From positions 682,001-746,000 of the forward strand of contig NZ_FNLC01000001.1 of the NCBI RefSeq assembly GCF_900104065.1: a DNA stretch of 64,000 nt, written 5' to 3'. The position numbers and the translations under genes are program-made. Within the stretch, counting starts at the first letter, position 1. Each line of letters starts with the position of its first letter. The notes under the pieces were generated by a model. That model searched no databases. It was not told the DNA's origin and saw only the letters and a list, made by a program, of their open reading frames with translations. Source of the stretch: Natronobacterium texcoconense. Its GTDB lineage: Archaea > Halobacteriota > Halobacteria > Halobacteriales > Natrialbaceae. Below, in pieces: positions 4,790-21,446 of the stretch.

Positions 4790-5950
4790 TTACTGAGTTT
4801 CCAACGTATCCTGTACCAGTTGCGGTTCGATCGTGTGCGTCCCGTCATCAACGGCCTCGTCAAGCACGCGACTGCAGATAGACAGTACCTGCCGAATATT
4901 GCCCTGCGACCGCTGAAGGACGACCTGTAGGGCATCCTCGGTGAATGGATCAAGCCCGGCCTGCCCATCGGTCCGTGCCGTCTCAAGGTAGCTTTCCACG
5001 AGATCGTAGAGTTGGTCGTCGGTCAACGGTCTGAGAGCGACTTCGTTCCCGATCCGCTCGGAGAACGCGTGATACTCCTGCATCACGTCCTGCCAGACCT
5101 CGGGCGCACAAGCAAACAAGATACTCAGGCCAGAACTATTCTGATCCATCAAGTGCCGGATACTGTTCAGCGTGGACTGCTTGTCCGCCGCTGACAACTG
5201 GGCGATGGATTCGAACTCGTCGATAAACACGTACACACCGATATACCCCAGATCCTGCAACAGGTTCTTGAACGAGGTAAACGCCCGGACAGCCATCGTA
5301 TCATCATCCAGCGCGGTATGGATCTCCATCGTCTTCCGCTGCTCATACCGGATACCTTCCCCCGTCAACCACTGCCAGGCATAGAGATCCGTATCCTCGT
5401 ACACCATGTGGACCATCGCCCGAGCAAAATCAGCGAACTTCGTCACATCACTCAACCGCTGAACCGCCCCTGGTACGATGTCGGACAACAGGACATCCCC
5501 ATCATCGATCAGGTCCTGCATCGCCCTGCCGCTCACCGGGTTTCGCTCCGTTTCATCCCGTGCCATTCGCGCAAGGTACTCGTAGGCAAACTCCTGCACC
5601 TGATCGAACCCGATATCGTACATGAACTCGTGGTAGATGTCGTGAAACCCCTCTCCGGGCTGAGCAACATATCCGACCACGACATCGTCGCGGTCACGGA
5701 CCAGTGACCGCGCATATTTCAGTGTATGGCTCTTCCCATTCCCATACTTTCCTGTCACCACCAGATGCTTCGACTTCCCGGTGCCGAGCAGCGTCGACAC
5801 TGTGTCACTCACCGCCTCCACAACGTGGTCCTGTCCACAGTAGATGATCGGATCCTCGGCAGGAACCGGACTATACGGGAATGGATTCTCCTCGAGACCG
5901 TACATGGTGTAATCGCGCGATTCGTCCGTGATGGTGAAACTGTCACTCAT
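4790..5950 (-). CDS. AAA+ ATPase (DUF2791/BrxC-D-like P-loop protein)
   Basis: This 386-residue protein has a clear Walker A (GKYGNGKS, K73) and Walker B (VFIDEFES, D244 E245). A sensor-like stretch ILFACAPEV follows, then a C-terminal helical lid. The opening YGLEENPFPYSP resembles the start of ORC/DnaA-type and BREX-associated ATPases, which couple ATP hydrolysis to DNA-bound complexes. Its start codon overlaps the stop of the winged-helix gene (5947-5950, ATGA), which in turn overlaps the TGT-like gene, so the three are translationally coupled and probably work as one complex. The order TGT-like, winged helix, ATPase suggests that the ATPase drives or regulates a base-exchange or restriction step. 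The precise subfamily is uncertain. Confidence 0.75.
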   Translation of the reverse strand: MSDSFTITDESRDYTMYGLEENPFPYSPVPAEDPIIYCGQDHVVEAVSDTVSTLLGTGKSKHLVVTGKYGNGKSHTLKYARSLVRDRDDVVVGYVAQPGEGFHDIYHEFMYDIGFDQVQEFAYEYLARMARDETERNPVSGRAMQDLIDDGDVLLSDIVPGAVQRLSDVTKFADFARAMVHMVYEDTDLYAWQWLTGEGIRYEQRKTMEIHTALDDDTMAVRAFTSFKNLLQDLGYIGVYVFIDEFESIAQLSAADKQSTLNSIRHLMDQNSSGLSILFACAPEVWQDVMQEYHAFSERIGNEVALRPLTDDQLYDLVESYLETARTDGQAGLDPFTEDALQVVLQRSQGNIRQVLSICSRVLDEAVDDGTHTIEPQLVQDTLETQ

Positions 5951-6861
5951 GGTTCTGGATCAAACGTGACCGCATCGTCGTGAACTGCAAGGTAGTAGTA
6001 CCGTTTGCCGTACTGTTCCACACCCGCCATGACCTGCTCCGTTGAATGCGTGGTCGTGACCAGTCCCTCTTCGTCATCCGCCAGTCGGATCTGCTTGATC
6101 CCCCATTCAGCATCTTTCGCCCCGGTATCGGTCGGTGCACCAAGGAGCTCCAGCTTTCCAATATTCTGACCTACAAGAGTTGTCAAGCCGGTATCGAACG
6201 CATCCCGATCACACCGAACACGCTCACAGAGAAATTCCCGCAGCTCCGGGATCGATACATACCGTTGCGACAGGTTGACTCCGGTCCGCTCCTCCAACTC
6301 ATCGAAGACCGCCAGCAGTACGAACGGGAAATTGGGGGGTACCGTAGATCGGTCCACGACATAGTACGTTCCGGTGAACGCGTTACGCTGGATCACTCCC
6401 AACCGCTCGGCCCAGTCACCGACGACCTCGACGCCGGTCTGATTAAACGCATACGGTGTGTGCTCGTTCCGGTCCTCTAACTCCGCCAGCAGGGTCTGCA
6501 ACTCGGCTGGTTGGATCTCCTCCAGCACGGAAAGGAACGCACCATAATGAGGACTCCGCGTCTCCAGGATGGAACTTACCTGCCGCCAGTCCTCATCCGT
6601 GACCGCCTCGTGAAACTGTTCTCCAACAGTCGTCACCCGATACCGGTCCACCTCGTCATCTCTACCATCATCCGTTGATTGCAGGGTCCGGATAAGATCG
6701 AGTCGCAGACTCTCCAGCACGATTGACCGAAGCCGCCGCTCAGTCGTGTCGAACTGCTCCTCAAGATTCGACATCGTCTGTGAACTGTTGAGACAGGCAT
6801 CCGTGATCTCTACCAGTCGTGCAAGCGTCACCGGCCGAACCGTAGGACGTTGATCGCTCAT
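5947..6861 (-). CDS. Winged-helix protein of the TGT/ATPase operon, function unknown
   Basis: I do not recognise a family for this 304-residue protein. Residues 10-60 (LVEITDACLN ... TERRLRSIVLESLRLDLI) and 110-175 look like winged-helix units: helix-rich with a terminal strand such as YYVVDRS. A further helical module covers 195-240. It has no catalytic motif that I can see. It overlaps both neighbours by 4 bp (ATGA junctions at 5947-5950 and 6858-6861), implying fixed stoichiometry with the ATPase and the TGT-like enzyme. A DNA-binding or substrate-selecting subunit is the simplest inference. Comparison with DpdG-type proteins would be informative. Confidence 0.6.
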   Translation of the reverse strand: MSDQRPTVRPVTLARLVEITDACLNSSQTMSNLEEQFDTTERRLRSIVLESLRLDLIRTLQSTDDGRDDEVDRYRVTTVGEQFHEAVTDEDWRQVSSILETRSPHYGAFLSVLEEIQPAELQTLLAELEDRNEHTPYAFNQTGVEVVGDWAERLGVIQRNAFTGTYYVVDRSTVPPNFPFVLLAVFDELEERTGVNLSQRYVSIPELREFLCERVRCDRDAFDTGLTTLVGQNIGKLELLGAPTDTGAKDAEWGIKQIRLADDEEGLVTTTHSTEQVMAGVEQYGKRYYYLAVHDDAVTFDPEP

Positions 6862-7892
6862 GCAAACCTCCTGACCCGCTGTTTCGCGGCTTGGTACGCC
6901 CGCTGTGTGACCTCGTTCCCTTGGAACCGGAGATCCAGATATGTCTCCACGTCCTCACCTGCCGCCACCATATATCGGAACCGCCGGAGTTCCATCGTCA
7001 ACGCCCAGAGATTGTGTTGCGTCAGTGCGTCCCGGTCCTTGCGCAGTTCCACCAGCGGCGTATCACGGCAGACCGGACAGGAACACGGCAGGTACGAGAG
7101 ATCCGTCACATGAGACAGTTCCTGCCCGCCAAACCCCGGGATCAAGTAGTTCCGGTTCGCAGCACTCCGGATGAACGCAGTCGAATCAAAACTATCGACA
7201 CCGAGGTACAGCAATAAGGGCTGATACACTAATCCACCCAGTCCGTACACGTGAAGATGCTTCTCAGTTGTCCGCCGAGCCGCCAGAATCAACCGAATAA
7301 CCTTCTCGTAATCCGTTCGGACCGGAACAAGACTCCCGAGGGCATATCCATCAAACTCTCCGTTCTTCTCCAAGTAATTGATATTATTCCGGACTGTCTC
7401 CGAATCAAGTCCGTGGACACTGGCGAACAGAAGTTGTTCCCCATCGTGCCGGTCACTCGCAGCAAGGGCGTATTCAGTACTCTCGGATATCCGGCGCTGG
7501 TTTTCCGCATCACGATTCTCTCGTGACAATGGACGGTCCACCGTTCCCAGGATGTCTGCACCGATCTGGCGTTGGGTCTCCAGTGTCCGTTCTGGGGTAG
7601 TGTCAACCTTGTCGGCCTGAAAGTCGTATCCCCCACTGTCGGCAAACACCACTGTATCTGAGGGGACACCCATCTCTTCCCGGAGTGTCGTCCCATCAAG
7701 AAGCCGATTCCATTGCGGTTCACGTTGCCTGATCGCTCGTGCGTTCACCATCGCCGTCTGGAGATCTGGGATCGCCTCAATGTACGCCGGTGTATTGTCA
7801 GAGGACCGCTTTCCGATATTCCGGACCGGGAATAAGACTGGTGTCTCCACGCTCCCGTGGGGGGTCTCGAGCATTTGTTGTCTGTACAGCAT
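6858..7892 (-). CDS. TGT-fold base transglycosylase (archaeosine-TGT-like catalytic domain)
   Basis: This 344-residue protein keeps the features of the tRNA-guanine transglycosylase fold: the general acid/base motif FADSGGYDFQ (D85), the TPE...Q.IGADI segment (about 99-115), the LGSLVP phosphate/base loop (185-190), the nucleophile motif GVDSFDST (D233/D236, matching GVDMFDCV of TGTs), and a zinc site C270-x-C272-x2-C275...H293. TGTs swap guanine for a 7-deazaguanine such as preQ0. The archaeal tRNA enzyme (TgtA) carries extra C-terminal domains including PUA, absent here, so the target is probably not canonical tRNA; DNA is plausible as for DpdA. It is the first gene of an overlapping operon with a winged-helix protein and an ATPase. 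Confidence 0.8.
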   Translation of the reverse strand: MLYRQQMLETPHGSVETPVLFPVRNIGKRSSDNTPAYIEAIPDLQTAMVNARAIRQREPQWNRLLDGTTLREEMGVPSDTVVFADSGGYDFQADKVDTTPERTLETQRQIGADILGTVDRPLSRENRDAENQRRISESTEYALAASDRHDGEQLLFASVHGLDSETVRNNINYLEKNGEFDGYALGSLVPVRTDYEKVIRLILAARRTTEKHLHVYGLGGLVYQPLLLYLGVDSFDSTAFIRSAANRNYLIPGFGGQELSHVTDLSYLPCSCPVCRDTPLVELRKDRDALTQHNLWALTMELRRFRYMVAAGEDVETYLDLRFQGNEVTQRAYQAAKQRVRRFA

Positions 7893-7932
7893 GCCGGATG
7901 CGCTCGCCTAAGCTGGGCTGAGCAATAAAAGG

Positions 7933-8002: not shown

Positions 8003-8278
8003 ATGCTCGACGACGTTCGGGAAATCGTCTGTCCGAAATGGTCGATCGAAATCCTTGGGTTCCTCGCTAAAAACAGTCCGCAGAACTACAGCGACATTGC
8101 CGAAGAGTTCGACACATCGAGCGATATCATCGTTAACCGGCTTCAACAATTAGTTGATACCGGGCTTCTGGAACGTGACGAGCGAAGTGTAAAAGACGTC
8201 CAGTACTCAATCACAGAAGACGGGGAAGAACTCATAAAGATTCTCGAAGATGCCGACAACCTTCTCGACGATCAGTAG
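8003..8278 (+). CDS. HxlR/ArsR-like winged-helix regulator
   Basis: This 91-residue single-domain protein has the HxlR-type opening CPKWSIEILGFL followed by a helix-turn-helix (YSDIAEEFDTSSDIIVNRLQQLVDTGLL) and a wing strand ending YSITEDGEELI. Such proteins bind DNA as dimers and often control the adjacent divergent operon; the palindrome at 7933-7948 is a good target. Its 3' end overlaps the convergent DUF6884-like gene by 7 bp (8272-8278), so it sits between the two TGT-type modules and could couple their expression. Confidence 0.75.
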   Translation: MLDDVREIVCPKWSIEILGFLAKNSPQNYSDIAEEFDTSSDIIVNRLQQLVDTGLLERDERSVKDVQYSITEDGEELIKILEDADNLLDDQ

Positions 8279-8970
8279 TCACTCAGGCCCGACTGATTCG
8301 GATCTACGGTACAGTACCGTTCTATCTCAGATACATTCGTCGGCGTATTTCCGTTCTCCCGGTGCAATGCGAAGTTCTCGATAAATTCCCCTTTCAACGC
8401 AATCACGATTGTTCCGTACTCTTTCGCATCTGTTGTTCGGGCCGATACTGATACAGCGTTCTCATACTCGGTAGCCAAGTCTTCACTGTTGAACAGCACG
8501 ATGAAGGTTTCTTCCGGGATAAGGGAAACAAGGTCGTCGATTTGTGCACTCCGGTAATAGTCGCTGCCCAACGCGAAAAAGATGATATCGTACGCATTGT
8601 CAGAAATGCGGTCACGCAGATCGTCGTAGATTTCGAGTTGCTTTGCCCGCTCGTCAACCTCCGCGGTGGTCATATCGGAGAATGTGACGTCGTACAGTGG
8701 CAGTGATTCTGACGCGTCAACGACGCCGAATCCAGCACTGATGAAGACACGGTCGACGTCGTCGCCCGCTTCTTCGAACCGTGTCACAGCGTCGGAGATA
8801 CGTTGTTGCTGCCGCCCTTCGTAGAGCTGATCAGCAGGCTCGACGTAGACATCATCCTGCTGAACGAGTTCTGTCCGGGGAGTTGAGTCGATCGTCTCTG
8901 TATTGACTGGCTCGTACCGGGTCTTCCCTTTCTTATCGCTTGAACACTGGTCGACGATGAGTACCTGCAT
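8272..8970 (-). CDS. DUF6884/YaaA-like protein, partner of DpdA
   Basis: This 232-residue protein has an N-terminal Rossmann-like strand with a Cys/Lys motif (DQCSSDKKGK, C9, K13, K14), then ADQLYEGRQQQR and FISAGFGVVDASESLPLYD, the pattern of the DUF6884/YaaA-like family (call from motif resemblance). It starts 2 bp after the stop of the DpdA gene, so the two are cotranscribed. In bacterial Dpd systems a helper converts the inserted preQ0 nitrile to an amide, and this protein is a candidate for such a step; that is inference. Its last seven residues, QSGLSDY, are the same as those of DpdA but use different codons at four of seven positions. Confidence 0.65.
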   Translation of the reverse strand: MQVLIVDQCSSDKKGKTRYEPVNTETIDSTPRTELVQQDDVYVEPADQLYEGRQQQRISDAVTRFEEAGDDVDRVFISAGFGVVDASESLPLYDVTFSDMTTAEVDERAKQLEIYDDLRDRISDNAYDIIFFALGSDYYRSAQIDDLVSLIPEETFIVLFNSEDLATEYENAVSVSARTTDAKEYGTIVIALKGEFIENFALHRENGNTPTNVSEIERYCTVDPNQSGLSDY

Positions 8971-8972
8971 GG

Positions 8973-11168
8973 TTAGTAGTCGGAGAGCCCTGACTGCATC
9001 ATTGGTTCCGGAACGAACTCGCTATCGTAGTCCAGTCGCTTGAGGACTGCGGCACGTAGATCTCGTGGGTCATCGATAATATGGACGTTACACCCGGTCG
9101 ATTCGATGGCCTCTACCAGTTCCTTTTCTGGTGTCCAGTTTTTCCCGTCGATGAAGACGTCTTGGTACCGGGCGCAGTACTCTTGCAGTTCGTTCTGAAT
9201 TGCACGAGGTGCGAAGGAGATCGACGTCGGTGATGCGTCCCACCACTCGTGAATTCCGTTCGCGGTCACGGCCCCAATCTCTGCGACAGGGAGATCATGC
9301 ACTTCTGACCAGAACTGGGGTCGGTTATCCTGAAGGAACTTGTCAACAGATTCATGGACAGAAAGGCCGGTCCCGCCCCGCGTCAGGACCGCCATCTTCG
9401 GGAGAGCTCGCTCGAACTGGTCGTAAAACCGGCGCGTATTGTGGAAGCCACGGCGACGGTTCCGGTTGTTCCCCCGGAAGATTGCGACTTCGATGCCCTG
9501 TTCTCGGCAGATCCGGCAATCACACTCACGCCATGGTTCGTGGCGTAACATCTCTTTGTATGCGTCGAGGTAGCCTTCGTCTTCCACATGGGCAGCATAA
9601 TTTTGCACCAGTATCCACACCTGATCGAACGTGCCGTACTCACCGGACCGTTCCTCTCGTTTGCTAATTTCCTCTAGTTTCGTTGGTGACCAGTCATCGA
9701 AGACGGTTCGAACACGGTCGATCAGGTCTTGGTACTCACTGAACGGGACCGGGTTGTCCGGGTCATCCTTTCGCAGTAGTTTCGCAAGACGACCACGGAA
9801 CTTGCCGCTGAAGTTTGCTCGAAGTTTCGATCCGTACGCGTAATCACTCCGAAGTTCCTCTTTGACATCTCGGAGGAGAGACTGATCATACCGGTCGTCA
9901 TGCCGGTGTTCTCTGAGGTATGGTTCGAGATTGTCTAAGGAGACGACCGCTGACTGGTGCCAGTCGATTAGCGCATCCGCGATTGACTCGTCGTTGTCGA
10001 ACGCCCGCAACGCGTATAGCATCTCTTGGCCGCGGAGCGCAGTCTCTACCGCTTCTTCGACCGAGGCTCGACTGGACGGATATCGGATGCGGATGGCGTC
10101 GTACCGGTTGTCACTGTCCAGATGGTAATTATCGCCCCCGGTCCACGCGGCACGGAGCATACTGGCGCTGTCGAAACTGGCCATCCCGCTCCGGCCGATG
10201 GTCTCGAAGGCTCCGGTCTTCGCGAACCCGAACACGTGGGTATCAACGCGGGTCTCGTGTTCGCGCTCGAATTCTTTCACTCGGTGACCAACCGATGTTA
10301 CACAGTCTTTCACGTCTTCTTCGGAACTCCCGGCGACACCACCGATCCCAAGATACTGGTAGCCCAAGTCGAGGACCTGCTCGGCAGCCCGGCCATAAGA
10401 TCGAGGATCCCAGCCCTGGATCGCGACCATCAACCGGAACGAATAGTCTCCGGCATCGTAGAGCTCTTTCATCTCTTTCGCGTTCGCCAGCGTCAGTTCA
10501 TACCGGAACGACATATCGTCATCCCGATACACTGCATGGGGATGGGTATCCAGGTCAGCCAGTATGGCTGAGAGCGGTTGATCGAAGATCGCTGGGTCGA
10601 ACTCTTGGACATCGGTGCCGTAGATCGATGGCTCATATTCTTGGACGTAGTCTGGCCACTCAGCAGGCCACTCATCGGTCATCACGTCGACTTCGCTCGA
10701 GATCTCGTCAGGGATGTCCGATGTTGAAAATCCGTCTGGGAACGCTCGTTCGTCTAGATACAAGCGTGCCGTATGCCCGCTCCCGAGTACGAGGTGATCA
10801 ATAGTGACGCCGACAGAGACATCAAGCGTTTCGTAGAACTCGAGCATTTCTTCGTTGCTGTACGGGGGGAACGGGAAGGATTTGTACCCCCACGCACCAC
10901 AGTCACTGATCGTTGGAAGCCACTTCGGGATGTCCAACATCGGCGCATCATAGACGCCATTTTCAGTGATGCGCTCATATTTGGATGGCGTATCCTCTAC
11001 CTGCTCACGAGAAATTAATACACCGTCGATTGGTGTCGACTCGTAATCGAAGATATCCCAAATATACGCGGTATCACGTTCACTTGGATCTAGTTCTGAG
11101 TGCTCATCGTGGATAAAGTCATAGTTCGCGTCGACGAAGTCATCCCATTCTGGAACGTAGAACCGCAC
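8973..11168 (-). CDS. dpdA: DpdA-type DNA guanine transglycosylase
   Basis: This 731-residue protein matches the DpdA layout. It has WLPTISDCGAWGY (D89), a PPYS..E..EFY segment, GVTIDHLV (D124), the barrel strands VAIQGWD and GIGGVAGS, HVFGFAKTG, the nucleophile motif ASFDSASMLRA (D333), and a zinc site C549-x-C551-x2-C554 followed by EVAIFRGNNRNRRRGFHN with H576. Bacterial DpdA puts preQ0 into DNA in place of guanine. A ~130-residue C-terminal extension ends in QSGLSDY. The ORF opens with GTG at 11168. An AT-rich TATA-like stretch lies only about 10 nt upstream, so the real start may be a little downstream. The following gene (DUF6884-like) begins 2 bp after the stop. Archaeal hosts supply preQ0 through the archaeosine pathway. 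Confidence 0.85.
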   Translation of the reverse strand: MRFYVPEWDDFVDANYDFIHDEHSELDPSERDTAYIWDIFDYESTPIDGVLISREQVEDTPSKYERITENGVYDAPMLDIPKWLPTISDCGAWGYKSFPFPPYSNEEMLEFYETLDVSVGVTIDHLVLGSGHTARLYLDERAFPDGFSTSDIPDEISSEVDVMTDEWPAEWPDYVQEYEPSIYGTDVQEFDPAIFDQPLSAILADLDTHPHAVYRDDDMSFRYELTLANAKEMKELYDAGDYSFRLMVAIQGWDPRSYGRAAEQVLDLGYQYLGIGGVAGSSEEDVKDCVTSVGHRVKEFEREHETRVDTHVFGFAKTGAFETIGRSGMASFDSASMLRAAWTGGDNYHLDSDNRYDAIRIRYPSSRASVEEAVETALRGQEMLYALRAFDNDESIADALIDWHQSAVVSLDNLEPYLREHRHDDRYDQSLLRDVKEELRSDYAYGSKLRANFSGKFRGRLAKLLRKDDPDNPVPFSEYQDLIDRVRTVFDDWSPTKLEEISKREERSGEYGTFDQVWILVQNYAAHVEDEGYLDAYKEMLRHEPWRECDCRICREQGIEVAIFRGNNRNRRRGFHNTRRFYDQFERALPKMAVLTRGGTGLSVHESVDKFLQDNRPQFWSEVHDLPVAEIGAVTANGIHEWWDASPTSISFAPRAIQNELQEYCARYQDVFIDGKNWTPEKELVEAIESTGCNVHIIDDPRDLRAAVLKRLDYDSEFVPEPMMQSGLSDY

Positions 11169-11273
11169 GCGATATATTCACCACAAACTGGTTTGACGCA
11201 TCCGTATATCAACCTGCTGGAGTCCGTTTGTTAGCTGTGGCAATGTCTATGAGATGCGCCATAATTTGTTTAG

Positions 11274-11633
11274 CTACTCCTCGGAATCAAGATCTAAGAA
11301 TTCATCAAATGCTCCTGTCTTTTCAGCCTCAAGCACATCGTAGGCTAGACTTTTGTAGAGCACTTCATCACACGATCTACAGACCGTGTATAAGCTTCCC
11401 TTTTGATCCCAGTAGTCGTTGCGCTGGATGACTGTATTCTCATGATGCCCGTAGTGTCCTCCTTCATACCTGATGTGATCAAATTCAGTACCGCTACATT
11501 CAGGACATGGATCAGACAGATTGTTCCAGTCATCTCGAGAGACGTACTCAAATTCAAATGATTCCTCAGATGGGAGATGCAGCATATACACTTCCAGAAA
11601 CTCGTCTTGATCATCTGAATCGATTTTGATCAC
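11274..11633 (-). CDS. Small zinc-ribbon protein
   Basis: This 119-residue acidic protein has two knuckles, CPECSGTEF (C-x2-C) and CRSCDEVLY (C-x2-C), about 42 residues apart, which would form one zinc ribbon. The segment between them includes HIRYEGGHYGHHEN. No enzyme motif is visible. Its start overlaps the stop of the upstream small gene by 4 bp (11630-11633, ATGA), so they are translationally coupled. It is the last gene of the operon that begins with the Orc1/Cdc6-like ATPase. Confidence 0.6.
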   Translation of the reverse strand: MIKIDSDDQDEFLEVYMLHLPSEESFEFEYVSRDDWNNLSDPCPECSGTEFDHIRYEGGHYGHHENTVIQRNDYWDQKGSLYTVCRSCDEVLYKSLAYDVLEAEKTGAFDEFLDLDSEE

Positions 11634-11821
11634 CAGCTCTTCGGATGATAGTACTGGATTTGAGCTTCTTCGAACTCGTTTTCGAATCGATCGACGGTGG
11701 CTGGATAGATTTCGGTCAGAAACTCCTCAGCGGTTACACCATCGTACGTGTAGACCCCATCGATTCCATAGATATGGTCTTCTCGTTTCTCAAGCATTCG
11801 TACATTGATTTCAAGCCTCAT
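11630..11821 (-). CDS. Small acidic protein downstream of the Cdc6-like ATPase; 5' limit uncertain
   Basis: The ATG at 11821 gives 63 residues (MRLEINVRMLEKREDHIY...). The same frame stays open and haloarchaeal-like in composition (SFLDLFDVDDDELGFVIGP) up to the TGA that ends the Cdc6-like gene at 11948-11950, with no ATG, GTG or TTG in the extra 42 codons. The true product may therefore be longer than 63 residues, or the gene may be 5'-truncated or an in-frame extension of the ATPase. I recognise no family. Confidence 0.5.
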   Translation of the reverse strand: MRLEINVRMLEKREDHIYGIDGVYTYDGVTAEEFLTEIYPATVDRFENEFEEAQIQYYHPKSW

Positions 11822-11947
11822 CTCGCCTGTTTCCTCGTATATCCGCGGACCTATTACGAATCCAAGCTCGTCGTCATCGACATCAAAGAGATCAAGGAAA
11901 GATTCAACCTCAACCAGTGGATCGCCTTCGTTCCAACCGATTTTCTC

Positions 11948-12754: not shown

Positions 12755-12954
12755 AGCAGTCTCACGCTCCGAACTAGGGACAATCTATCAGTCAGGATTC
12801 AAAAGGCGAGCCCGGGACGGTATTTCGTATGTGTTGCTCTAGACACATGTTCGAAACTAGTTATCCCGCATCAATAGATACGTTCGTCCGCTGGCTGGCA
12901 ACTGAAGCCAGGGGTCGCCAAAACGGTGTAGCGACTGCTCCCCCTCACGGTGTT
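12755..12954. other. Intergenic region between divergent Orc1/Cdc6-like genes; possible origin
   Basis: These 200 bp separate two divergent Orc1/Cdc6-type genes, a common place for haloarchaeal origins and their promoters. I see one short inverted repeat (CTGGCT/AGCCAG near 12890-12912) and an AT-richer part (12830-12875) but no convincing repeated ORB-type motif. The function is inferred from position only. Confidence 0.3.
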
Positions 12955-13995: not shown

Positions 13996-14001
13996 TCAGA
14001 T

Positions 14002-14397
14002 TCAGAAGAGATCGAGTAAGTTCGTCTCCTCGAGCTCATCGAGTTCGCGTCGGACGTCGCGACGATCGGCCAGCAGGTCCTGCCGGTCACGCCAGTGGGT
14101 TCGCCGTTCGTCACGGAGGTCCTGGTAGAACGATTCTATCCGGGACTTGAGCCGGTCGCGTTCGCCGTCCTTACCGGTCGACCGTGTATAGAGGAGTTCC
14201 AGTCGATCGACGTACCACTGCAGTTTCGACTCGAGTTCGTCGACGGCCTGATCCAGGAGTGCAGTGCGGGTCTCCAGTTCCTGATCGATCCGCTGTAGCT
14301 CGTCCTCGAGCCGCTGGCGTTCCTGTTCGTGTGACCGGTCGAGGAACTCCTCGATGTCGAACTCTGTGAATGCCGGGGTGGAGCGTTCGTCTTCCAC
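14002..14397 (-). CDS. Coiled-coil protein
   Basis: This 131-residue protein is almost wholly helical with heptad-like spacing, rich in E, R, D, L and Q (RLEDELQRIDQELETR..., RRDVRRELDELEE). No enzymatic motif is present. Its stop lies 6 bp from the end of the convergent Orc1/Cdc6 gene, and it follows a 48-residue ORF on the same strand by 32 bp. A structural or DNA-binding accessory role in the integrative element is possible but not shown. Confidence 0.6.
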   Translation of the reverse strand: MEDERSTPAFTEFDIEEFLDRSHEQERQRLEDELQRIDQELETRTALLDQAVDELESKLQWYVDRLELLYTRSTGKDGERDRLKSRIESFYQDLRDERRTHWRDRQDLLADRRDVRRELDELEETNLLDLF

Positions 14398-14429
14398 GGA
14401 CGAGTATTATGGAGATAGCCGGTTGTGAG

Positions 14430-14576
14430 TCACTCCTCACCCGGTTGCGATAGCTGTCGGTACTCTCGTGCCTTCTTTTGGTAGAGCTTCGGCAATGCCT
14501 CGATCTCTTCCTCGGTCCACTCGTTGACTTCCCGGAGCAGCTGTTCGGCTTCCGCCAGTCTAGAGCGTGGGGCCAT
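14430..14576 (-). CDS. 48-residue helical protein
   Basis: The ATG at 14576 opens a 48-codon frame (MAPRSRLAEAEQLLREVNEW..., ending RQLSQPGEE). It has a helical, acidic composition like the next gene and lies 32 bp upstream of it on the same strand. The family is unknown. Codon use (third-position G/C) supports coding. Confidence 0.45.
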   Translation of the reverse strand: MAPRSRLAEAEQLLREVNEWTEEEIEALPKLYQKKAREYRQLSQPGEE

Positions 14577-14673
14577 ATAGAGATAGTCGTGAGGCGTTCG
14601 TTTACCTGTGTGGACAGACTACGCTTCATTTGGGACGATCGGTGAAATAGATCACACCAAGATAATTCTTGGA

Positions 14674-15909
14674 CTACATCTCATCGAACTCTTCGAGTTT
14701 GTCGAGCACACCCGCCTCTTCTAGCTCCGCCAGCCGCTCAATGACTCGTTCTTTCGTCTCTGCGTTCGACTGAGCTTCAAGGCTGTTTGGACGGCCACAC
14801 TGTCTGCACTCGGTGTGTTGGCCTTCGTTCGCTGCTCCACAGAAGGTGCACTCCCAGTTCTCGTCTGGGTCTTCTGTCGTGTCGAGCCCGTACTCCTTGC
14901 GGATCGCCTGGTTGACGTCGTCGTTGTTCAGGTGGACGTAGACCTTCGCCCGGCTGGAACCGGGGACCCATCCCGCGAACTTGTTGAGCTGTTCGTAGCC
15001 CATGAAGGTCGCGACCTCCGTTAAGCGAGTATGCCGAAGGTTGTACGGTCTTCTCTTGCTTTCGGGAATATCGGCGCGTTCACAGGCATCCTTGAAACGG
15101 TTGAGGAAGCCGTTGTAGTTCATCCTGTCTCGAAGATCGGGTGTGTATTCGCACTGGTCGTCGTGGAACCGAGGTATCTTGCCACAGCCCCGGCATTTCT
15201 GCTGTTCACGTTTCACCCAGAGCGGTGCTGAAGGGTCGTCGATGTTACCCACTTCGCCGCCGAGTGGATGTTGAGCGATCCATTCCCGGAGTGTCCGTCC
15301 CGACCGGACGAGTTGGTTGTTCCGATCTGGCGTTCCCTTCGATCCTTCGAGGAAGATGAAGTCGCCTTTCCCGTTGCTCGTGAAATCGCTGATACTACAC
15401 TCGAGGAGTTCACCGGGTCGGGCGGCAGACTCGTAGAGAACGCTGGTGAAGGCACGGTCACGTGTATTGGAGAAGTTCCGGAACAAGCGTTGGCGTTCGT
15501 CTTCGGTGAAGAGGTCGTCCCGTGTGATCGGTGTCGCCTTCTTCTTGGTCACGGTGAAGAAGTCGACCTTGTCCGGGTGCTCGTGGCCGCCGTTCTCGAC
15601 CTTGTAGAACTTCTTGATCGTGCCCTTGAACTTGTGTTTGGTCGCTTCAGCGTAATCACTTCTGTTGAGATCAGCAAGAACCTGCTTGAGTTCGTCTTCA
15701 GACGCGCCTTGCAGCCGGAACCCGTCGGGCGTGAACCGCTTCAGCAGAGTTTTGAAAGACTGGATCTGGCGTTCTTGCTGGACGTCACTGATACCCTCCG
15801 CTGCCTGATGGTTGATAAACCGGCGTACTGCTTTTGCGTTCTCCGAGTGGACCTCGTTTTCGAGATTTTGAAGGCTGCGTTGTACGTCGACGTGTTTGGT
15901 GGTGGACAT
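14674..15909 (-). CDS. Tyrosine recombinase (integrase) with C-terminal zinc ribbon
   Basis: This 411-residue protein has an N-terminal SAM-like core-binding domain (to ~115) and a catalytic domain with the Arg in SAARPGELL, the H-x-x-R box YNLRHTRLTE and the nucleophile Tyr in SRAKVYVHLN. A treble-clef-like insertion (CRGCGKIPRFHDDQC) lies within the catalytic domain and a second ribbon (CTFCGAANEGQHTECRQC) follows it, a form common in haloarchaeal XerC/D-like integrases. It would cut and rejoin DNA at an att site. Upstream (15961-16051) are two inverted repeats that may be arm or core sites or regulatory elements. Confidence 0.85.
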   Translation of the reverse strand: MSTTKHVDVQRSLQNLENEVHSENAKAVRRFINHQAAEGISDVQQERQIQSFKTLLKRFTPDGFRLQGASEDELKQVLADLNRSDYAEATKHKFKGTIKKFYKVENGGHEHPDKVDFFTVTKKKATPITRDDLFTEDERQRLFRNFSNTRDRAFTSVLYESAARPGELLECSISDFTSNGKGDFIFLEGSKGTPDRNNQLVRSGRTLREWIAQHPLGGEVGNIDDPSAPLWVKREQQKCRGCGKIPRFHDDQCEYTPDLRDRMNYNGFLNRFKDACERADIPESKRRPYNLRHTRLTEVATFMGYEQLNKFAGWVPGSSRAKVYVHLNNDDVNQAIRKEYGLDTTEDPDENWECTFCGAANEGQHTECRQCGRPNSLEAQSNAETKERVIERLAELEEAGVLDKLEEFDEM

Positions 15910-15960
15910 AGCGTTGTTTCACGTGTGGAGTCAGAAGGAGAGTGGGGAGACACACTGCTT

Positions 15961-16051
15961 CCGTTGGGTGTACTGAAGACCCAACGGTCGCCTCAACAGA
16001 CCTCAGTAATCAGTGGGGTTCGTTTGCCCCTCATGACGGTTGGACCCCACT
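15961..16051. repeat. Inverted repeats upstream of the integrase
   Basis: A perfect 9-bp inverted repeat CCGTTGGGT...ACCCAACGG (15961-15969 and 15979-15987, 9-nt loop) is followed by a second, AGTGGGGT...ACCCCACT (16012-16019 and 16044-16051). They occupy the middle of the 323-bp gap between the integrase and the lipoprotein gene; I see no gene in that gap. They could be recombinase or regulator binding sites, or an RNA structure. Confidence 0.5.
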
Positions 16052-16232
16052 ACACGGTTTGTGTACCGGGCGTCCGGCCCAAGCTCTAAACTATTGAGAG
16101 CGCTTCTTTCAAGTTCTCCTCGACTCTCCTTCTTTCGTTTGAGTTTTTCAAAGAAAACCTAGCCAGTATTCTTTATAAGCAATCTAGATACTGCAACACA
16201 ACAGTACGGTTGAACGGATGAAAATCAGGGGT

Positions 16233-17693
16233 CTATCCGAGCATCTGGCTTTCCACTTCTTCGGTAGTTACTGGGTCAGAGTTTTCGCGGAACTGGTCAA
16301 AGTGTTCGTTGTTTTCTGTTATTAGAAGCCGGTTTTCGTTATTCCCGTAGAGCACCGCTTTTTTGCCTGTTTTGTGCGCATGGATCATTCCAGCTTTGAG
16401 CGCGGTTTCGAACTCGGCGTCTAATGGTTGGTTGTTTTCTATTCTTTGCAGATGTGTTTGCTGTAGCGGATCGCTGACTTCGATGTCTGTCGAGTTTACG
16501 TCAGGTATTCGGGTCGTAGAGTATAGTGCTATGGTGCCGGCTTGTTTTTTCCGGCTGTAGTTCGCCATTTCATCTACCTCCCCTACTTCATGGTCAGCTG
16601 GTGCGTAGTACCTGTCGCCTCGTCCCGCGTCCGGCGCGTTTGCCGGTTCTGTTACTGCGCCACCACCCGGATCATAATTAATCCATTGACCTGTGTTGCG
16701 TTCGAAGTATAGTGCATTGCCGTGCCCGCTCCCGCCAACATATCCACCTTCCAGATCAATCTCCCGGTCGTGTTCGTACCGGTTCTCACCTTCAGGAATG
16801 TCGTTAATGTGTCTATCTACGAGTGTTATTCCGGTCGCAGTTTTCTGATCCATGGTTCCGGAGATACCTGATCTGCCATCGTTTTGGTGGCTGAAGTGCA
16901 TACTGTAGGCCACTCCAGTATCGTTCTTAATGTCCTCCAAATCGCCGACATCCAAGTCTTCAAATCGGTTGGTTTGCCATTCGTCCTCTTCGTGCGAGTA
17001 CAGATATCCTAGGTCGACAGGATCAAATTCCGGATGGAAATCAACCTCATCGTTCCTGACCGTCTCCCTGACGATTTCATCGATCGTCTCGTTCCTGATA
17101 TGCTGGTCTCGTAGCTCCTGATATTCTTCTTCCGTGAACTCCACGTTGTCAAAACTGAACGGCGTCTCGTAGTCGTCGAAGTTTTGTCCGTCAACTATGA
17201 TTTGCGCCCGGTAGGTTTCTGGTACTTCTTTCACGATGGATCTCGCTTCGTCCGCTACTGTTTCACCGTCTTTCTCTGCTTTCACCGTCCCTTCCTGTCT
17301 GCCGTCCAGTATCTGATTACAGGCGACCTCATACGTGCCTAACTCCGATCCAAGTTCTACTGTTCGGGAGTCGTACTCGTTCTCCAGATGCAGTTCAAGG
17401 CTGTCGACTTCATCGACAGGTTCACCGTCCTCGTACAGTTCTAGATCTTCTAACTGGAAGTATTCTAGATCGTCTTCGTTCATCTGGCCAAGACTATTGG
17501 TAGAAAGATCAGAGAGATCGATTGTTGAGTCTGAAAGCGAGAAGTCGAGTTCGTAGTCAGGACTGGTTTCCTCGTCGTTGTAGCCGTTGTCCCTGGTTTC
17601 TGCGGTTTCGTCTTCGAGTAACTCGTTACATCCGGCGAGTAGTGCTGTTGCGGTTGCTGCGACGAACGCTCTACGGTTTTTCCTTCTGTCCAC
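16233..17693 (-). CDS. Large acidic lipoprotein, function unknown
   Basis: The N-terminus MDRRKNRRAFVAATATALLAGC has a twin-arginine-like RRAF motif, a short hydrophobic stretch and a lipobox (LAGC, C22), so the 486-residue protein is probably exported and anchored to the outside of the membrane. The first ~130 residues after the lipobox form beta-rich, Asp/Glu-rich repeats. The C-terminal part contains NALYFERNTGQWINYDPGGG and a histidine-containing region (KAGMIHAHKTGKKAVLYG). No family is recognised. It follows the integrase region on the accessory DNA, so a surface or entry-related role is conceivable. Confidence 0.6.
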   Translation of the reverse strand: MDRRKNRRAFVAATATALLAGCNELLEDETAETRDNGYNDEETSPDYELDFSLSDSTIDLSDLSTNSLGQMNEDDLEYFQLEDLELYEDGEPVDEVDSLELHLENEYDSRTVELGSELGTYEVACNQILDGRQEGTVKAEKDGETVADEARSIVKEVPETYRAQIIVDGQNFDDYETPFSFDNVEFTEEEYQELRDQHIRNETIDEIVRETVRNDEVDFHPEFDPVDLGYLYSHEEDEWQTNRFEDLDVGDLEDIKNDTGVAYSMHFSHQNDGRSGISGTMDQKTATGITLVDRHINDIPEGENRYEHDREIDLEGGYVGGSGHGNALYFERNTGQWINYDPGGGAVTEPANAPDAGRGDRYYAPADHEVGEVDEMANYSRKKQAGTIALYSTTRIPDVNSTDIEVSDPLQQTHLQRIENNQPLDAEFETALKAGMIHAHKTGKKAVLYGNNENRLLITENNEHFDQFRENSDPVTTEEVESQMLG

Positions 17694-17796
17694 CCTCGAC
17701 CACTTAGTGTTGTGATTGGAAAGTAACGTTATAATTGTTGGTGATAGTGAAGGACAGAGGATTCAATTCGGTCAACTTCCTTGGTGACTAAACCAG

Positions 17797-18450
17797 CTAT
17801 TCCCAGTCGGAGAGTGTCGTCGTTTCGCTACCAGTGATCTTCGAGTGAAGATACGAAAGTTGCTTCCGTAGCTCAGCTATTTTCTCCCGATTCGTTCCCC
17901 AATTGGCGTGAAACCACACCCGGTAGCAATGAAACGGAGTACCATTCCAGTCTGCCGAGAAGGTTAGAATCTCGTGCTGAAGTGAACGCGTCTTCCCGTT
18001 GAAATGCGCCTTGAGTTCTTGATACACCGGTTCGAGGAAACAAATGACATGGTAGTGGTCCTGATCGAGTAATTCCAGTTGTTCGAGGAAATGTTGTACA
18101 TCGTCGGGAGTCGGCTCGATCTCCTGGGAGTCTGCGCCAACGCGCTCGACTAGATCAGTCATATACGCACCCTCGAGGCCGCTATCAACGACGATATCTC
18201 GGAATTGGTCGTTCCTGTGTGTGGGGTCGGTCGAATGGAAGTTCTCAAAGCTCGCAGGCATGTGTGTCGATGGATTTAGCGATAACAATACAATCGACGG
18301 TCGTACCTGTTCTTTGCGGTTGCGAACGAACTCGAACAGTTCTTCGGGGTCTTCTTCGATACAGCCGTCTTCTGGAAACGTGGGGCTCCAGAGGGCCCAA
18401 CTCGCTGTCGGATACCCCTCTTTCAAACGCTGTAACGTCTGATCGTCCAT
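17797..18450 (-). CDS. UDG-superfamily-like protein (DUF1643-like pattern)
   Basis: I start at ATG 18450 (MDDQTLQRLKEGYPTAS). Central strands read VLLSLNPSTHMP, then FHSTDPTHRNDQFRDIV and GAYMTDLVERV, with a later strand YHVICFLEP. This NPS...D..R...G....DL pattern resembles DUF1643 and uracil-DNA-glycosylase-fold proteins. If the resemblance holds, it would bind or excise an altered base. It is divergent from the BglII-like/DUF429 gene pair. The call is tentative. Confidence 0.45.
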   Translation of the reverse strand: MDDQTLQRLKEGYPTASWALWSPTFPEDGCIEEDPEELFEFVRNRKEQVRPSIVLLSLNPSTHMPASFENFHSTDPTHRNDQFRDIVVDSGLEGAYMTDLVERVGADSQEIEPTPDDVQHFLEQLELLDQDHYHVICFLEPVYQELKAHFNGKTRSLQHEILTFSADWNGTPFHCYRVWFHANWGTNREKIAELRKQLSYLHSKITGSETTTLSDWE

Positions 18451-18719
18451 GATATACGTTAACTGATTTTCGCCGATGAAACTATCTCTGAGCTGCAGCA
18501 TGTGGAGAACCAGCGCCAACAGACCGTGATTGGCAAACGGGACGGCGACTTCGGTATAGTCCGCCCACTTACTTCTTCGTAAGAGCCTTTGAACAAGTGA
18601 TCCACGTATGAGCCGGCTGTCCCGCCGCTCGTATAGACCCCAAACTCTCCGAAAATCGTTATAGAGTCACCTCGGATTTTATGTCAACAACCTCGTGAAG
18701 TGTGGCCAAGGAGCCAGCT

Positions 18720-19223
18720 ATGGAACCGGTACCCAGCCAGACGTGGTCGTACAGGGGGGCGCGAGAGATCCTCGAAGAGAAGGGAGTTCTCGAAGAGCTT
18801 CCGATCATTGCGGAAGCATACGACGAATACGGCGGTGGCAATCAAAATCTCGCGGACCGGCGTGAGTTGTTGCAGCCGATCGACTGGGAACAGGAAGTCA
18901 CCGTCCGATTCGAAGCTCCAAACACGAACGAAACTATCTCACGCCGAGCCAATTTTGATGCGTACAAATCGGGTGTCTTGCTCGAACACGAACGCGGTGA
19001 ACAGATGCGAGCGAACTGGCACCTGATGAAAATGGAAGCTACGTATCGGGATCCTCGTGGCTTTGCTGCTGGCGACGACGTTAGCGCAGGCGTTCTCCTG
19101 ATTCCCGACTACGTCAATTTCCCTACCCTCGATCGCACGAAAAACGATGTCCAAGCCGTTCTGGGAAACTATTTCGGATTCTCGATTCCCCTGTTCGTGT
19201 GGGAGTATCCTACAGGAGATTGA
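18720..19223 (+). CDS. BglII/BstYI-like restriction endonuclease candidate
   Basis: I take ATG 18720 (MEPVPSQTWSYRGAREILEE); a GTG at 18702 would add six residues. The order ANFDAYKSGVLLEHERGEQ (D, then E-x-E spacing), a helical stretch, and VSAGVLLIPDY fits the BglII/BstYI nuclease core, where a strand with acidic residues is followed by a conserved SVGV strand. At ~167 residues it is near the minimum for that family. No DNA methyltransferase is adjacent, so an alternative is a nuclease that senses modified DNA. It is followed after 6 bp by the DUF429 gene. Confidence 0.45.
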   Translation: MEPVPSQTWSYRGAREILEEKGVLEELPIIAEAYDEYGGGNQNLADRRELLQPIDWEQEVTVRFEAPNTNETISRRANFDAYKSGVLLEHERGEQMRANWHLMKMEATYRDPRGFAAGDDVSAGVLLIPDYVNFPTLDRTKNDVQAVLGNYFGFSIPLFVWEYPTGD

Positions 19224-19229
19224 ACGACG

Positions 19230-20036
19230 ATGGCCAAACAGCATTCGATCGGAATTGACTGGTGTAACGACACCTGGCTTGCAGTCGTCTATCAGAACGG
19301 CGAATACGAAGATGTGCTGATGGCAGACGACGTTGTCGACGTGTACCGGACGTACGAGAATTCCGTCCAACGGATCCTCATCGATGTCCCGATCGGACTG
19401 TTCCAAGAAGGCGACCGTGAGGGTGATGAGGAACTCGTGCGCCAGTGTGACAAACTGGCGAGACAGGTATTGGGATCACGCCACAGTTCCGTCTTTAACC
19501 CACCTGCCCGCGAAGCCGCTGAAGAAGCTGTAGCCGAGGAACCACACGAGAAAGTGACCAGGACGAACAAACGAATCACAGGAAAGGGGTTACAGCAGCA
19601 AGCCTACCATATTGCCAAAGGAGTCTTCGAGGTCGATAAGTTACTCCAGGATGATCAGAGTCCATCTGTCGATGGAATTGACGATACGATTGCGGAGGCA
19701 CATCCCGAGGTTTGTTTTAGAGCGTTGGCGGGAGAAGAACTCAAACACTCCAAGAAGTTGGTGTCCGGATTCGTCGAGCGATTAGAGGCGATGAGAGAAG
19801 TCGAGAACGAATCGGAGCAGACCTTCTACGAGGTCTGCAACGACATCTCCGCGAAGGAAGACACAGACGTCGAGATCGACGATGTCCTAGACGCGATGGT
19901 GTTAGCTATCACCGCCGCTGCTGATGAGGCTGAACTACTCCGGCTACCCAGCGGGAATCCACCATCCGACTCTACAGGCCTCCCTATGGAGATGGTCTAT
20001 CGAGCGAGAGAACCGTTACTGGAAGACCAGAAGTAG
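19230..20036 (+). CDS. DUF429 predicted RNase H-fold nuclease
   Basis: This 268-residue protein opens with the RNase H-like strand SIGIDWCNDTWLAVV, followed by the DVPIGL motif (ILIDVPIGLFQEGD) and the AHPEVCF box (EAHPEVCFRAL), then D.LDAM near the C-terminus. These are the acidic and histidine signatures of DUF429. It probably acts on nucleic acid with metal ions. It is in an operon with the BglII-like gene (6-bp gap), so the two may form one defence unit. Confidence 0.8.
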   Translation: MAKQHSIGIDWCNDTWLAVVYQNGEYEDVLMADDVVDVYRTYENSVQRILIDVPIGLFQEGDREGDEELVRQCDKLARQVLGSRHSSVFNPPAREAAEEAVAEEPHEKVTRTNKRITGKGLQQQAYHIAKGVFEVDKLLQDDQSPSVDGIDDTIAEAHPEVCFRALAGEELKHSKKLVSGFVERLEAMREVENESEQTFYEVCNDISAKEDTDVEIDDVLDAMVLAITAAADEAELLRLPSGNPPSDSTGLPMEMVYRAREPLLEDQK

Positions 20037-20663
20037 ATGTGACCGCTAAGCCTGAACGGCACTCGGCCCCCTCTAACGGCCGCTGGACTTCGTGAGTATA
20101 TCAGAAATCGGCTCCCACTCTAAACACTCAGGCTTGCCAAATTCTGAATGGGTACTACTCAGCGTGGCACGGGTATTCCTATTCGGATCGGCATACTCAT
20201 CGGCGGACCACTGACTCTGGTGACTCGCGCAACTGCGCACGTATCGGATACGCACTTCGTTCCAGCGACTCCATACTCATCACCGGAACCAAGGTCCGAC
20301 GAGTATGCACACCTCCTTTCTCGTATCCCCAGATAGCAAGCGAGTTACCAGAGTCCCTATTCCGATATGCCGAAGTCCCCGAACTCCCACGCTAATGAGG
20401 GTCCGCGCCCCGCGTTCCTGCCGAAGTCGCCGAATTGGCTTGGATATCGTCCCTCGGGTGAGTTCTCGGCGCGAGCGCCCAGGCCGTCCGTAGATCGAGC
20501 TGTACAGGTCCCTCTCGGAGGGCCACGATCGCCACCCTTCTTTGCATATCACCGGTTCAGAGTTCACCCGCCAGGTCGCTTGCACGATTCGTTTCAGATG
20601 GAGGCGACGATCAACCCCGGTTCGATGCGCCCTGTTCGGAGCGGCTGCGACGGACGATAGGTC
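20037..20663. other. 627-bp noncoding stretch with scrambled repeats
   Basis: I see no convincing gene: the open frames here are basic and unlike haloarchaeal proteins. It contains direct repeats (CATACTCATC at 20192 and 20272; GCCGAAGTC..CCGAA at 20369 and 20420), an inverted 15-mer with one mismatch (20214-20228 and 20340-20354) and an inverted 8-mer (GCATACTC at 20191, GAGTATGC at 20301). It may be a decayed mobile element or a binding-site array. Confidence 0.5.
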
Positions 20664-21446
20664 TCAGGCCTTGAAGTGAACCAACGACTGCTGTTCGCTT
20701 CGCGAGGTCGTGAGCGTCTCGAGCTGGCGCTTCATTCGGAGATAGTGATAGGCCTGCTCGCGCCAGGTGTTTCGTCGGTCTTCGAGCCGGGTCCGGAGTT
20801 CATAGGCCGTCGAATCGGCCGAATCGAGGGCGGTCACCACGCGTGGACACTGAAGTACACGTGGCGTGACGCCGAACCCGTGCAGGCGGTGGTTCTCCGG
20901 AAGCTCGTCCCGGACCTGATGGATGATCTGGGCCACGGTCGAAGTGTTCTGTCGACGAGCGAGCGATCCGATCCCGACGTATCGTGTGAGTAACCCCTCC
21001 GACCGTAACTCGTCGAGATGCGTCAGATACTGCGCTGGCGACCAGCCCTGCAGGACTGCGACGGGTTCACCAGTCAGGCCCGAATCATCGAATGTATCGA
21101 GAAGTCGGCGGTGGTGGCGAGTCGTTCGCTGCTGGTGATCACGGACCGTTCGATCGTGTGTTCGAAGGACTGCCGGACTACAGGGGTAGTCTCGGAGGGC
21201 GAACAGCTCGGGGTCGTGGGTTCTGAGATAGGCGAGGTACTCTCGGTCCGAGGTCTGGTACGCTTCGCCAGTGAGTAGTTGGCTGTACCCGCCGGAGTCG
21301 ACGAAGAGGTTCTCGATCGTGTCGAACGGGGTGTTGTTCGCGGTCGCGTAGTTGAGTAACACGTTCGGCTCTTCCAGCTTCTGTAGCGCTTTTCGCGCAC
21401 TCCCGGAGGCGCACCCAAAGAAGAATCTGAAATCGGTGTTTTCCAC
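20664..21446 (-). CDS. Phage-type DpdA-like TGT-fold protein
   Basis: This 260-residue protein has the short DpdA pattern known from phages: FFFGCASGSARKAL, a strand LLNYATANN, FVDSGGYSQL (D50), REYLAYL, VLQGWSPAQY, YVGIGSLARRQ, LHGFGVTP and ALDSADSTAYE (D208/D211 as nucleophile candidates). It lacks a zinc cluster. Such proteins are thought to insert 7-deazaguanines into DNA. It follows a 60-residue gene on the same strand with a 6-bp gap. It is the third TGT-fold gene in the window, unlike both others in length and motifs. Confidence 0.7.
   Translation of the reverse strand: MENTDFRFFFGCASGSARKALQKLEEPNVLLNYATANNTPFDTIENLFVDSGGYSQLLTGEAYQTSDREYLAYLRTHDPELFALRDYPCSPAVLRTHDRTVRDHQQRTTRHHRRLLDTFDDSGLTGEPVAVLQGWSPAQYLTHLDELRSEGLLTRYVGIGSLARRQNTSTVAQIIHQVRDELPENHRLHGFGVTPRVLQCPRVVTALDSADSTAYELRTRLEDRRNTWREQAYHYLRMKRQLETLTTSRSEQQSLVHFKA

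What the first reader, a model, noticed from the sequence alone, without database searches (positions are those of the whole stretch)
4790..21446. Three different TGT-fold enzymes within 17 kb
Genes at 6858-7892 (344 aa, zinc site), 8973-11168 (731 aa, DpdA type) and 20664-21446 (260 aa, phage-type, no zinc) belong to three distinct branches. Archaea already make preQ0 for tRNA archaeosine, so no preQ0 synthesis genes are needed and none is seen. One element may put different 7-deazaguanines into DNA, or one enzyme may counter another.
Basis: partly seen in the sequence, partly recalled or inferred. Interest (0 to 1): 0.75.

Follow-up and report, generated by a model that had tools for sequence, protein, structure and literature searches.

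The report
Clamp-tethered two-enzyme archaeal DNA-modification system
Two of the three base-swapping enzymes here are fixed partners in one haloarchaeal DNA-marking defence system, and the marking enzymes carry tags that should hook them onto the ring that follows the DNA-copying machinery, as their bacterial cousins also seem to do; the third enzyme is an unrelated virus-type gene next door.

Summary
The three TGT-fold genes are real and fall in three separate branches, but they are not three rival DNA modifiers. The 731-aa gene is a bona fide DpdA. The 344-aa gene (TGT2) is its obligate partner: among 391 haloarchaeal genomes each occurs in 56, 55 of them shared. With a DpdC-like protein, a winged-helix protein and a BrxD-like ATPase they form a conserved module, often beside preQ0-synthesis and restriction-type genes. 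DpdB is missing. Across 47 DpdA loci a second TGT (18) and DpdB (12) never co-occur, so TGT2 plus an NTPase probably replaces DpdB. The 260-aa gene is a phage-type DpdA, distributed independently of the module. Unexpected: DpdA and DpdC end in a PCNA-binding (PIP) motif (QSGLSDY here; 17 of 17 non-redundant split DpdAs), and bacterial long DpdAs carry beta-clamp motifs (27 of 56 versus 0.3 expected). Best reading: a Dpd restriction-modification-like system whose base-exchange enzymes are tethered to the replication sliding clamp, so that new DNA is marked behind the fork. Clamp binding, the role of TGT2 and the modified base are inferred, not shown.

The parts
8973..11168 (-). DpdA (731 aa), DNA-guanine transglycosylase; catalytic Asp89 and Asp333, Zn site C549/C551/C554 with His576
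   Evidence: NCBIfam DpdA equivalog 279 bits; 7ui4 match; alignment A1; motif positions
8976..8996 (-). C-terminal PIP-box-like motif QSGLSDY of DpdA
   Evidence: 17 of 17 non-redundant split homologues against 0.23 in shuffles; 10 of 1378 other genes; own FEN1 ends QTGLDRWT
8272..8970 (-). DpdC-like protein (232 aa, DUF6884/YaaA-like), putative dPreQ0 maturation enzyme
   Evidence: PADLOC DpdC 32 bits; Pfam DUF6884 23.3 bits, below cut-off; fused to DpdA in about half of haloarchaea and, at the other end, in bacteria
8275..8295 (-). C-terminal PIP-box-like motif QSGLSDY of the DpdC-like protein
   Evidence: all 20 non-redundant homologues carry Q..[LIF]..[FY] near the end, 14 by the strict test
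6858..7892 (-). TGT2 (344 aa), second transglycosylase, catalytic residues intact, no tRNA-binding C-terminal domains, pocket Gln replaced by His160
   Evidence: fold closest to 1iq8 (TM 0.86)
5947..6861 (-). winged-helix protein (304 aa), overlaps TGT2 by ATGA
   Evidence: AlphaFold pLDDT 85, weak matches to winged-helix DNA binders; conserved in the module
4790..5950 (-). BrxD-like AAA+ ATPase (386 aa), Walker A GKYGNGKS, overlaps the previous gene by ATGA
   Evidence: Pfam BrxC_BrxD 68.9 bits; Walker motifs
8003..8278 (+). small HTH regulator (91 aa) between the two halves of the module; family seen in 10 related regions
1..2408 (+). 3' part of a 1058-aa PD-(D/E)XK/Cas4-like protein; the restriction-type cassette continues upstream of the window (L004: DpdJ-like helicase 14339-17110, AAA protein 10936-14346, MZB-domain protein 16920-19235)
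   Evidence: the same cassette next to DpdA in other genomes
20664..21446 (-). phage-type DpdA (260 aa), independent of the module; Asp50 and Asp208 kept, no zinc site
   Evidence: PF23859 57 bits; 14 of 391 genomes, 4 with DpdA; tree 100/100 with phage DpdA
20673..20693 (-). PIP-box-like motif QQSLVHF near the C-terminus of the phage-type DpdA
   Evidence: also seen in several homologues

Best explanation
A haloarchaeal Dpd system (restriction-modification-like). DpdA exchanges guanine for preQ0 in DNA, and the DpdC-like protein, often fused to DpdA, converts it, probably to dADG. preQ0 comes from the host's archaeosine pathway or from genes beside the module. TGT2, a winged-helix DNA binder and an AAA+ ATPase take the place of DpdB as the ATP-driven part of insertion, TGT2 most likely as a second catalytic subunit of the insertion machinery. 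DpdA and DpdC are tethered to PCNA through C-terminal PIP boxes, so that daughter strands are marked behind the replication fork; unmarked incoming DNA is attacked by the associated helicase and nuclease genes. Shown by computation: gene identities, obligate pairing, intact active-site residues, mutual exclusion with DpdB, conserved clamp-type motifs. Inferred: clamp binding, the modified base, the role of TGT2, restriction.
For: DpdA equivalog and 7ui4 match. Pairing in 55 of 56 genomes, p about 6e-65 without correction for relatedness. Five-gene module in nearly all of 50 regions although order and orientation vary. DpdC fused to the C-terminus of DpdA in haloarchaea and to the N-terminus in bacteria. 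preQ0 genes and a Vut_1 transporter beside the module. DpdB absent; second TGT and DpdB exclusive: 18 and 12 loci, none with both, of 47, p 0.0014. Both catalytic Asp kept in every TGT2. PIP-like tail in 17 of 17 DpdA and 20 of 20 DpdC, own FEN1 as positive control and other genes 10 of 1378. Beta-clamp motifs in bacterial long DpdA 27 of 56 against 0.33 expected; DpdB 0 of 27, TGT2 0 of 21. Asgard DpdAs end KQTTLKDFR and KQTTLGEF.
Against: No binding, activity or mass-spectrometry data. The PIP pocket of Haloferax PCNA is unusually shallow, and these motifs lack the second aromatic residue of the consensus (PMC2737543), so affinity is unknown. Nearly half of the fused DpdA-DpdC proteins fail the motif test (14 of 25 match), and 29 of 56 bacterial long DpdAs fail the strict clamp pattern, though some keep relaxed forms. 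The cyanobacterial QLELPL copies share descent. In 17 of 47 loci neither DpdB nor TGT2 lies within about 10 kb, so some DpdAs may need neither. The DpdC similarity is weak (32 bits; DUF6884 below cut-off). DpdJ is clear here, but DpdH-like and PLD proteins were seen only in relatives.
Confidence: 0.6

Rival explanations
1. TGT2 is a second, independent DNA modifier with another base specificity, so the module puts two different 7-deazaguanines into DNA.
For: All catalytic residues are kept, and the base-pocket Gln of other TGTs is His160 in all 9 haloarchaeal TGT2s in the tree. TGT2s come from at least two separate TGT branches.
Against: The near-perfect pairing with DpdA and the mutual exclusion with DpdB fit a shared reaction better. 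Bacterial TGT2s keep the Gln.
Confidence: 0.22
2. TGT2 is a structural or regulatory partner of DpdA (a heterodimer like eukaryotic QTRT1/QTRT2) and not a catalyst.
For: TGTs dimerise (established knowledge), and cyanobacterial TGT2s have lost the zinc site.
Against: Both catalytic Asp are invariant in all 31 TGT2s examined from three branches, which is not expected of a pseudoenzyme.
Confidence: 0.15
3. TGT2 acts on tRNA or another RNA, for example to release preQ0 or to sense infection, and is not a DNA enzyme.
For: The nearest solved structure is the archaeosine tRNA enzyme (TM 0.86), and the tree places haloarchaeal TGT2 on the tRNA-TGT side.
Against: It lacks the C-terminal tRNA-binding domains of that enzyme, scores 147 against a cut-off of 350 for tRNA TgtA, and follows DpdA in its distribution.
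Confidence: 0.1
4. The C-terminal QxxLxx[FY] tails are not clamp motifs but another docking tag, for example between DpdA and DpdC themselves.
For: Both proteins carry the same tail and nothing has been tested biochemically.
Against: The pattern matches the published PIP definition and own FEN1. Bacterial DpdAs carry beta-clamp-type motifs instead, Asgard DpdAs carry PIP-type ends, and the unrelated phage-type DpdA has one too.
Confidence: 0.2

Closest known systems
Bacterial Dpd islands (dpdA-K; Salmonella Montevideo type)
   Same: DpdA, a DpdC-like protein, a DpdJ-type helicase, nuclease genes, and in relatives DpdH-like and PLD-type proteins and preQ0 genes or a transporter
   Different: No DpdB; a second TGT, a winged-helix protein and a BrxD-like ATPase instead; clamp-type motifs; DpdC fused to DpdA in about half of the haloarchaeal copies
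BREX-related capture (BRC) systems with TGT (PMC12839542)
   Same: TGT together with BREX-type ATPase relatives and no DpdB; those authors also suggest that an NTPase replaces DpdB
   Different: BRC is built on HerA/FtsK, PglZ, DUF6079 and sometimes a GNAT; those authors found no DpdC, and the passages read do not describe a TGT pair
Phage DpdA (PF23859, phrog_1279)
   Same: The 260-aa protein falls among them with full support
   Different: It carries a PIP-like motif near the C-terminus and lies in a haloarchaeal chromosomal element; unrelated to the module
Archaeosine tRNA-guanine transglycosylase (TgtA)
   Same: Catalytic fold, Asp pair and zinc site of TGT2
   Different: TGT2 lacks the tRNA-binding domains, has His for the pocket Gln, is about 33% identical and follows DpdA in its distribution
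DNMT1 maintenance methyltransferase (analogy only, from general knowledge)
   Same: A DNA-modifying enzyme recruited to PCNA by a PIP box
   Different: Methylation and not base exchange; unrelated proteins; clamp binding not shown here

Membership tests
Dpd system | DpdA (NF041059 over cut-off) | tested here: met
   279.3 bits against 200
Dpd system | DpdB (NF041060, DGQHR) | tested here: not met
   absent from the own genome and 0 of 22 DpdA-bearing genomes over cut-off; one weak hit in G273
Dpd system | DpdC | tested here: inconclusive
   PADLOC DpdC 32 bits; Pfam DUF6884 23.3 bits, below the cut-off of 30; fusion with DpdA supports it
Dpd system | restriction genes dpdD-K | tested here: inconclusive
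   DpdJ-like 181 bits upstream; DpdH-like and PLD proteins only in relatives
Dpd system | 7-deazaguanine in genomic DNA | not testable with these tools
   needs nucleoside mass spectrometry
tRNA TgtA | TIGR00432 over cut-off and tRNA-binding domains (TGT2) | tested here: not met
   146.6 against 350 bits; 344 aa with no C-terminal domains, 1iq8 matched only over the catalytic part
TGT superfamily (TGT2) | PF01702 over cut-off, catalytic Asp pair, Cys3His zinc site | tested here: met
Phage DpdA (260 aa) | PF23859 over cut-off and position in tree | tested here: met
   57.1 against 27 bits; 100/100 branch with phage DpdA
PCNA-binding (PIP) proteins | terminal Qxx[LIM]xx[FY] conserved in the family | tested here: met
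   17 of 17 DpdA; DpdC 14 of 20 strict, 20 of 20 if F is allowed at the middle position and a slightly longer tail
PCNA-binding (PIP) proteins | physical binding to PCNA | not testable with these tools
   needs a binding assay
BREX | BrxD equivalog over cut-off | tested here: not met
   NF033438 50.3 against 350 bits; only the Pfam BrxC_BrxD domain is met
BREX | PglZ, PglX and BrxL genes | not tested
   no dedicated search was run

The most novel reading that the evidence does not exclude
Insertion of 7-deazaguanine into DNA by Dpd systems is coupled to replication through the sliding clamp, by PIP boxes in archaea and by beta-clamp motifs in bacteria, gained at different places of the protein; and a second transglycosylase with an NTPase, recruited at least twice from different TGT branches, replaces DpdB.
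Probability: 0.55. Interest if true: 0.88.

Novelty: new variant of a known kind. Interest (0 to 1): 0.78.

Why it matters
How Dpd systems keep self DNA marked while it is being copied appears to be open. Clamp motifs on the insertion enzyme, of the archaeal kind in archaea and the bacterial kind in bacteria, would answer it and make a direct, testable parallel to maintenance methylation. The exclusive choice between DpdB and a second TGT defines a subtype that searches requiring dpdA plus dpdB (as in PMC11888242) would not retrieve, and it is widespread in haloarchaea. It also bears on why halovirus HVTV-1, which has no DpdA, carries dPreQ1 at about 30% of its G: its host encodes a DpdA (PMC6884629), and a Haloarcula DpdA of this kind is seen here.

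Tried and rejected
- The 260-aa protein as part of the same system: rejected (independent distribution).
- Sequence homology between the haloarchaeal winged-helix protein and the ~250-aa protein in the same place in Firmicutes, and between the two ATPases: hhalign found none of weight; the order TGT2 - mid-size protein - NTPase is shared, the proteins are not.
- Every TGT2 next to an NTPase: only 21 of 30 by a simple Walker A scan of two neighbours each side, so not claimed as a rule.
- IMG/VR search for the 260-aa protein: nothing.
- Fold search of the winged-helix protein: only weak matches to winged-helix DNA binders, RPC62 and SspB among them, none with E at or below 0.001.
- The primary Dpd papers (PNAS 2016, NAR 2023) are not held, so whether a second TGT was ever mentioned there could not be checked.
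Full report
1. Observation. The three ORFs are present at the given coordinates. Family scans confirm 344 aa = TGT (109 bits), 731 aa = DpdA (279 bits, over the curated cut-off), 260 aa = phage DpdA (57 bits, over the cut-off). The genome is haloarchaeal: the window is C1:682001-746000 of a 4.0-Mb genome, whose own tRNA enzymes are elsewhere. A tree of 67 TGT-fold proteins, rooted at the midpoint only for drawing, puts the 731-aa protein within DpdA (100/99), the 260-aa protein with phage DpdA (100/100), and the 344-aa protein on the side of the tRNA enzymes next to a 673-aa Haladaptatus TGT (100/91). The catalytic Asp pair is present in every group tested. The zinc site is present in DpdA and in the 344-aa protein and absent from the 260-aa protein.

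2. One system, not three. Each of the 731-aa and 344-aa families occurs in 56 of 391 genomes of the class, 55 of them the same genomes; the one DpdA without its partner (G166) lies at a contig end, and the one partner without DpdA is G034. The 344-aa family is sharply separated from the tRNA enzymes (55% identity or more against about 33%). In 50 regions of up to 40 kb the core DpdA - DpdC-like - TGT2 - winged-helix protein - BrxD-like ATPase is nearly constant, while the two halves are sometimes inverted, separated or split by insertions. Such rearrangement with retention argues for a shared function and against hitch-hiking. In about half of the genomes DpdA and the DpdC-like protein are one polypeptide of about 967 aa. 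In bacteria the same domain is fused to the other end of DpdA, an independent joining of the same two activities.

3. preQ0 and restriction. Beside the module lie QueD (22 regions), QueE (20), QueC (20), FolE (14) and a Vut_1/YhhQ-type transporter (9). The own genome has QueC at C1:1028707. Two alternative effector-type cassettes recur: the own type (389 aa, 259 aa, 1136-aa AAA protein, DpdJ-like helicase, MZB-domain protein, 1058-aa PD-(D/E)XK protein) and a second with a DpdH-like ATPase, two DruE/DpdJ-like helicases of about 1840 aa and a PLD protein. I read these as the restriction side; that is inference.

4. DpdB replaced. Among DpdA loci fetched with a DpdA profile and from plasmids, some carry DpdB and others a second TGT. 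After thinning DpdAs to under 80% identity and asking for 8 kb on both sides, 47 loci remain: 18 with a second TGT, 12 with DpdB, 17 with neither, none with both (Fisher p 0.0014, relatedness not corrected). NF041060 (DpdB) is absent from the own genome and below cut-off in all 22 module-bearing genomes tested. Second TGTs fall in three clades, one sister to DpdA and two on the tRNA side, so the place was filled at least twice. A 2026 survey cites reports that DpdB is dispensable in some Dpd clusters and proposes an NTPase substitute in another system (PMC12839542); an exclusive second TGT was not found in the papers I could read.

5. Sliding clamp. The own DpdA and DpdC-like proteins both end in QSGLSDY, which fits the published PIP definition QXXhXXaa except for the second aromatic residue (PMC4929162, PMC2737543). 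Own FEN1 ends QTGLDRWT. After reduction to 80% identity, 17 of 17 split DpdAs match strictly (shuffled tails 0.23, maximum 3), and of 20 DpdCs 14 match strictly (shuffled 0.10, maximum 2) and all 20 when Phe is allowed at the middle position and the tail may run a few residues longer. The residues between the key positions vary while Q, L/F/I and F/Y stay. TGT2, winged-helix and ATPase never match (0 of 141), other neighbouring genes 10 of 1378. Asgard DpdAs end KQTTLKDFR and KQTTLGEF. Bacterial long DpdAs instead carry beta-clamp-type motifs (QLDLF, QLSLF, QLELF, QLELPL) in the linker between the two domains or at the C-terminus: 27 of 56, none elsewhere in the protein, 0.33 expected by shuffling (maximum 3 in 500); DpdB 0 of 27, TGT2 0 of 21. 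The beta-clamp consensus itself is from established knowledge. The motif type follows the clamp of the host domain of life. The unrelated 260-aa protein and several of its homologues also have PIP-like tails. No paper in the held library joins DpdA with the sliding clamp in a relevant way.

6. Mechanism proposed. DpdA swaps G for preQ0 in DNA at or behind the fork, held by the clamp; the DpdC-like enzyme, likewise tethered, finishes the base; TGT2 with the winged-helix protein and the ATPase supplies what DpdB supplies elsewhere. TGT2 keeps all catalytic residues, so I expect a catalytic role; the invariant His160 in place of the pocket Gln hints at a different base or step in haloarchaea. Its fold is closest to the archaeosine enzyme (TM 0.86) but without the tRNA-binding domains.

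7. Limits. All is computed from sequence. Motif counts are of related sequences; the reduced sets and shuffles lower but do not remove that. Cyanobacterial QLELPL motifs are one descent. Gene calls in the fetched regions are mechanical. The regex for the bacterial motif was fixed after looking at the sequences, so its count is descriptive, with the shuffles and the other protein families as controls. Whether earlier Dpd papers noted a second TGT could not be checked.

Noticed in passing
L284:956-2977 (Haladaptatus sp. YSMS36 plasmid): A 673-aa TGT, the closest relative of the haloarchaeal TGT2 clade in the tree (100/91), also with His for the pocket Gln; its context was not studied. A shorter plasmid TGT match in Natrinema sp. 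SYSU A 869 (hit H65) was not placed.
   Followed up: partly
L169:11576-12049 (Haloarcula sinaiiensis pHsi139): An EVE-domain protein between the DpdA-DpdC fusion and TGT2; EVE domains can read modified bases, so this may be a reader or effector.
   Followed up: no
L145:13686-14408 and similar (family F26, 7 regions): CARF/Csa3-like regulators beside the effector cassette in several genomes, suggesting control by a signal nucleotide.
   Followed up: no
window 14674-37896: Two integrase-type genes (14674-15909, 36928-37896) and HerA/TraG/VirB4-like ATPases between them: a probable integrative or conjugative element next to the module, carrying the 260-aa gene.
   Followed up: partly
G263:C3:5403-7600 and G263:C3:349040-351235: Two copies of the module on one replicon, one with broken DpdA and ATPase genes.
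   Followed up: no
window 11948-13995: Two Orc1/Cdc6-type genes in opposite orientation (268 and 388 aa); relatives occur near the module in about 10 other regions.
   Followed up: no
L205-L231 (Firmicutes loci): The order TGT2, ~250-aa protein, ~1060-aa P-loop NTPase mirrors the archaeal TGT2, winged-helix, ATPase order with no detectable sequence homology.
   Followed up: partly
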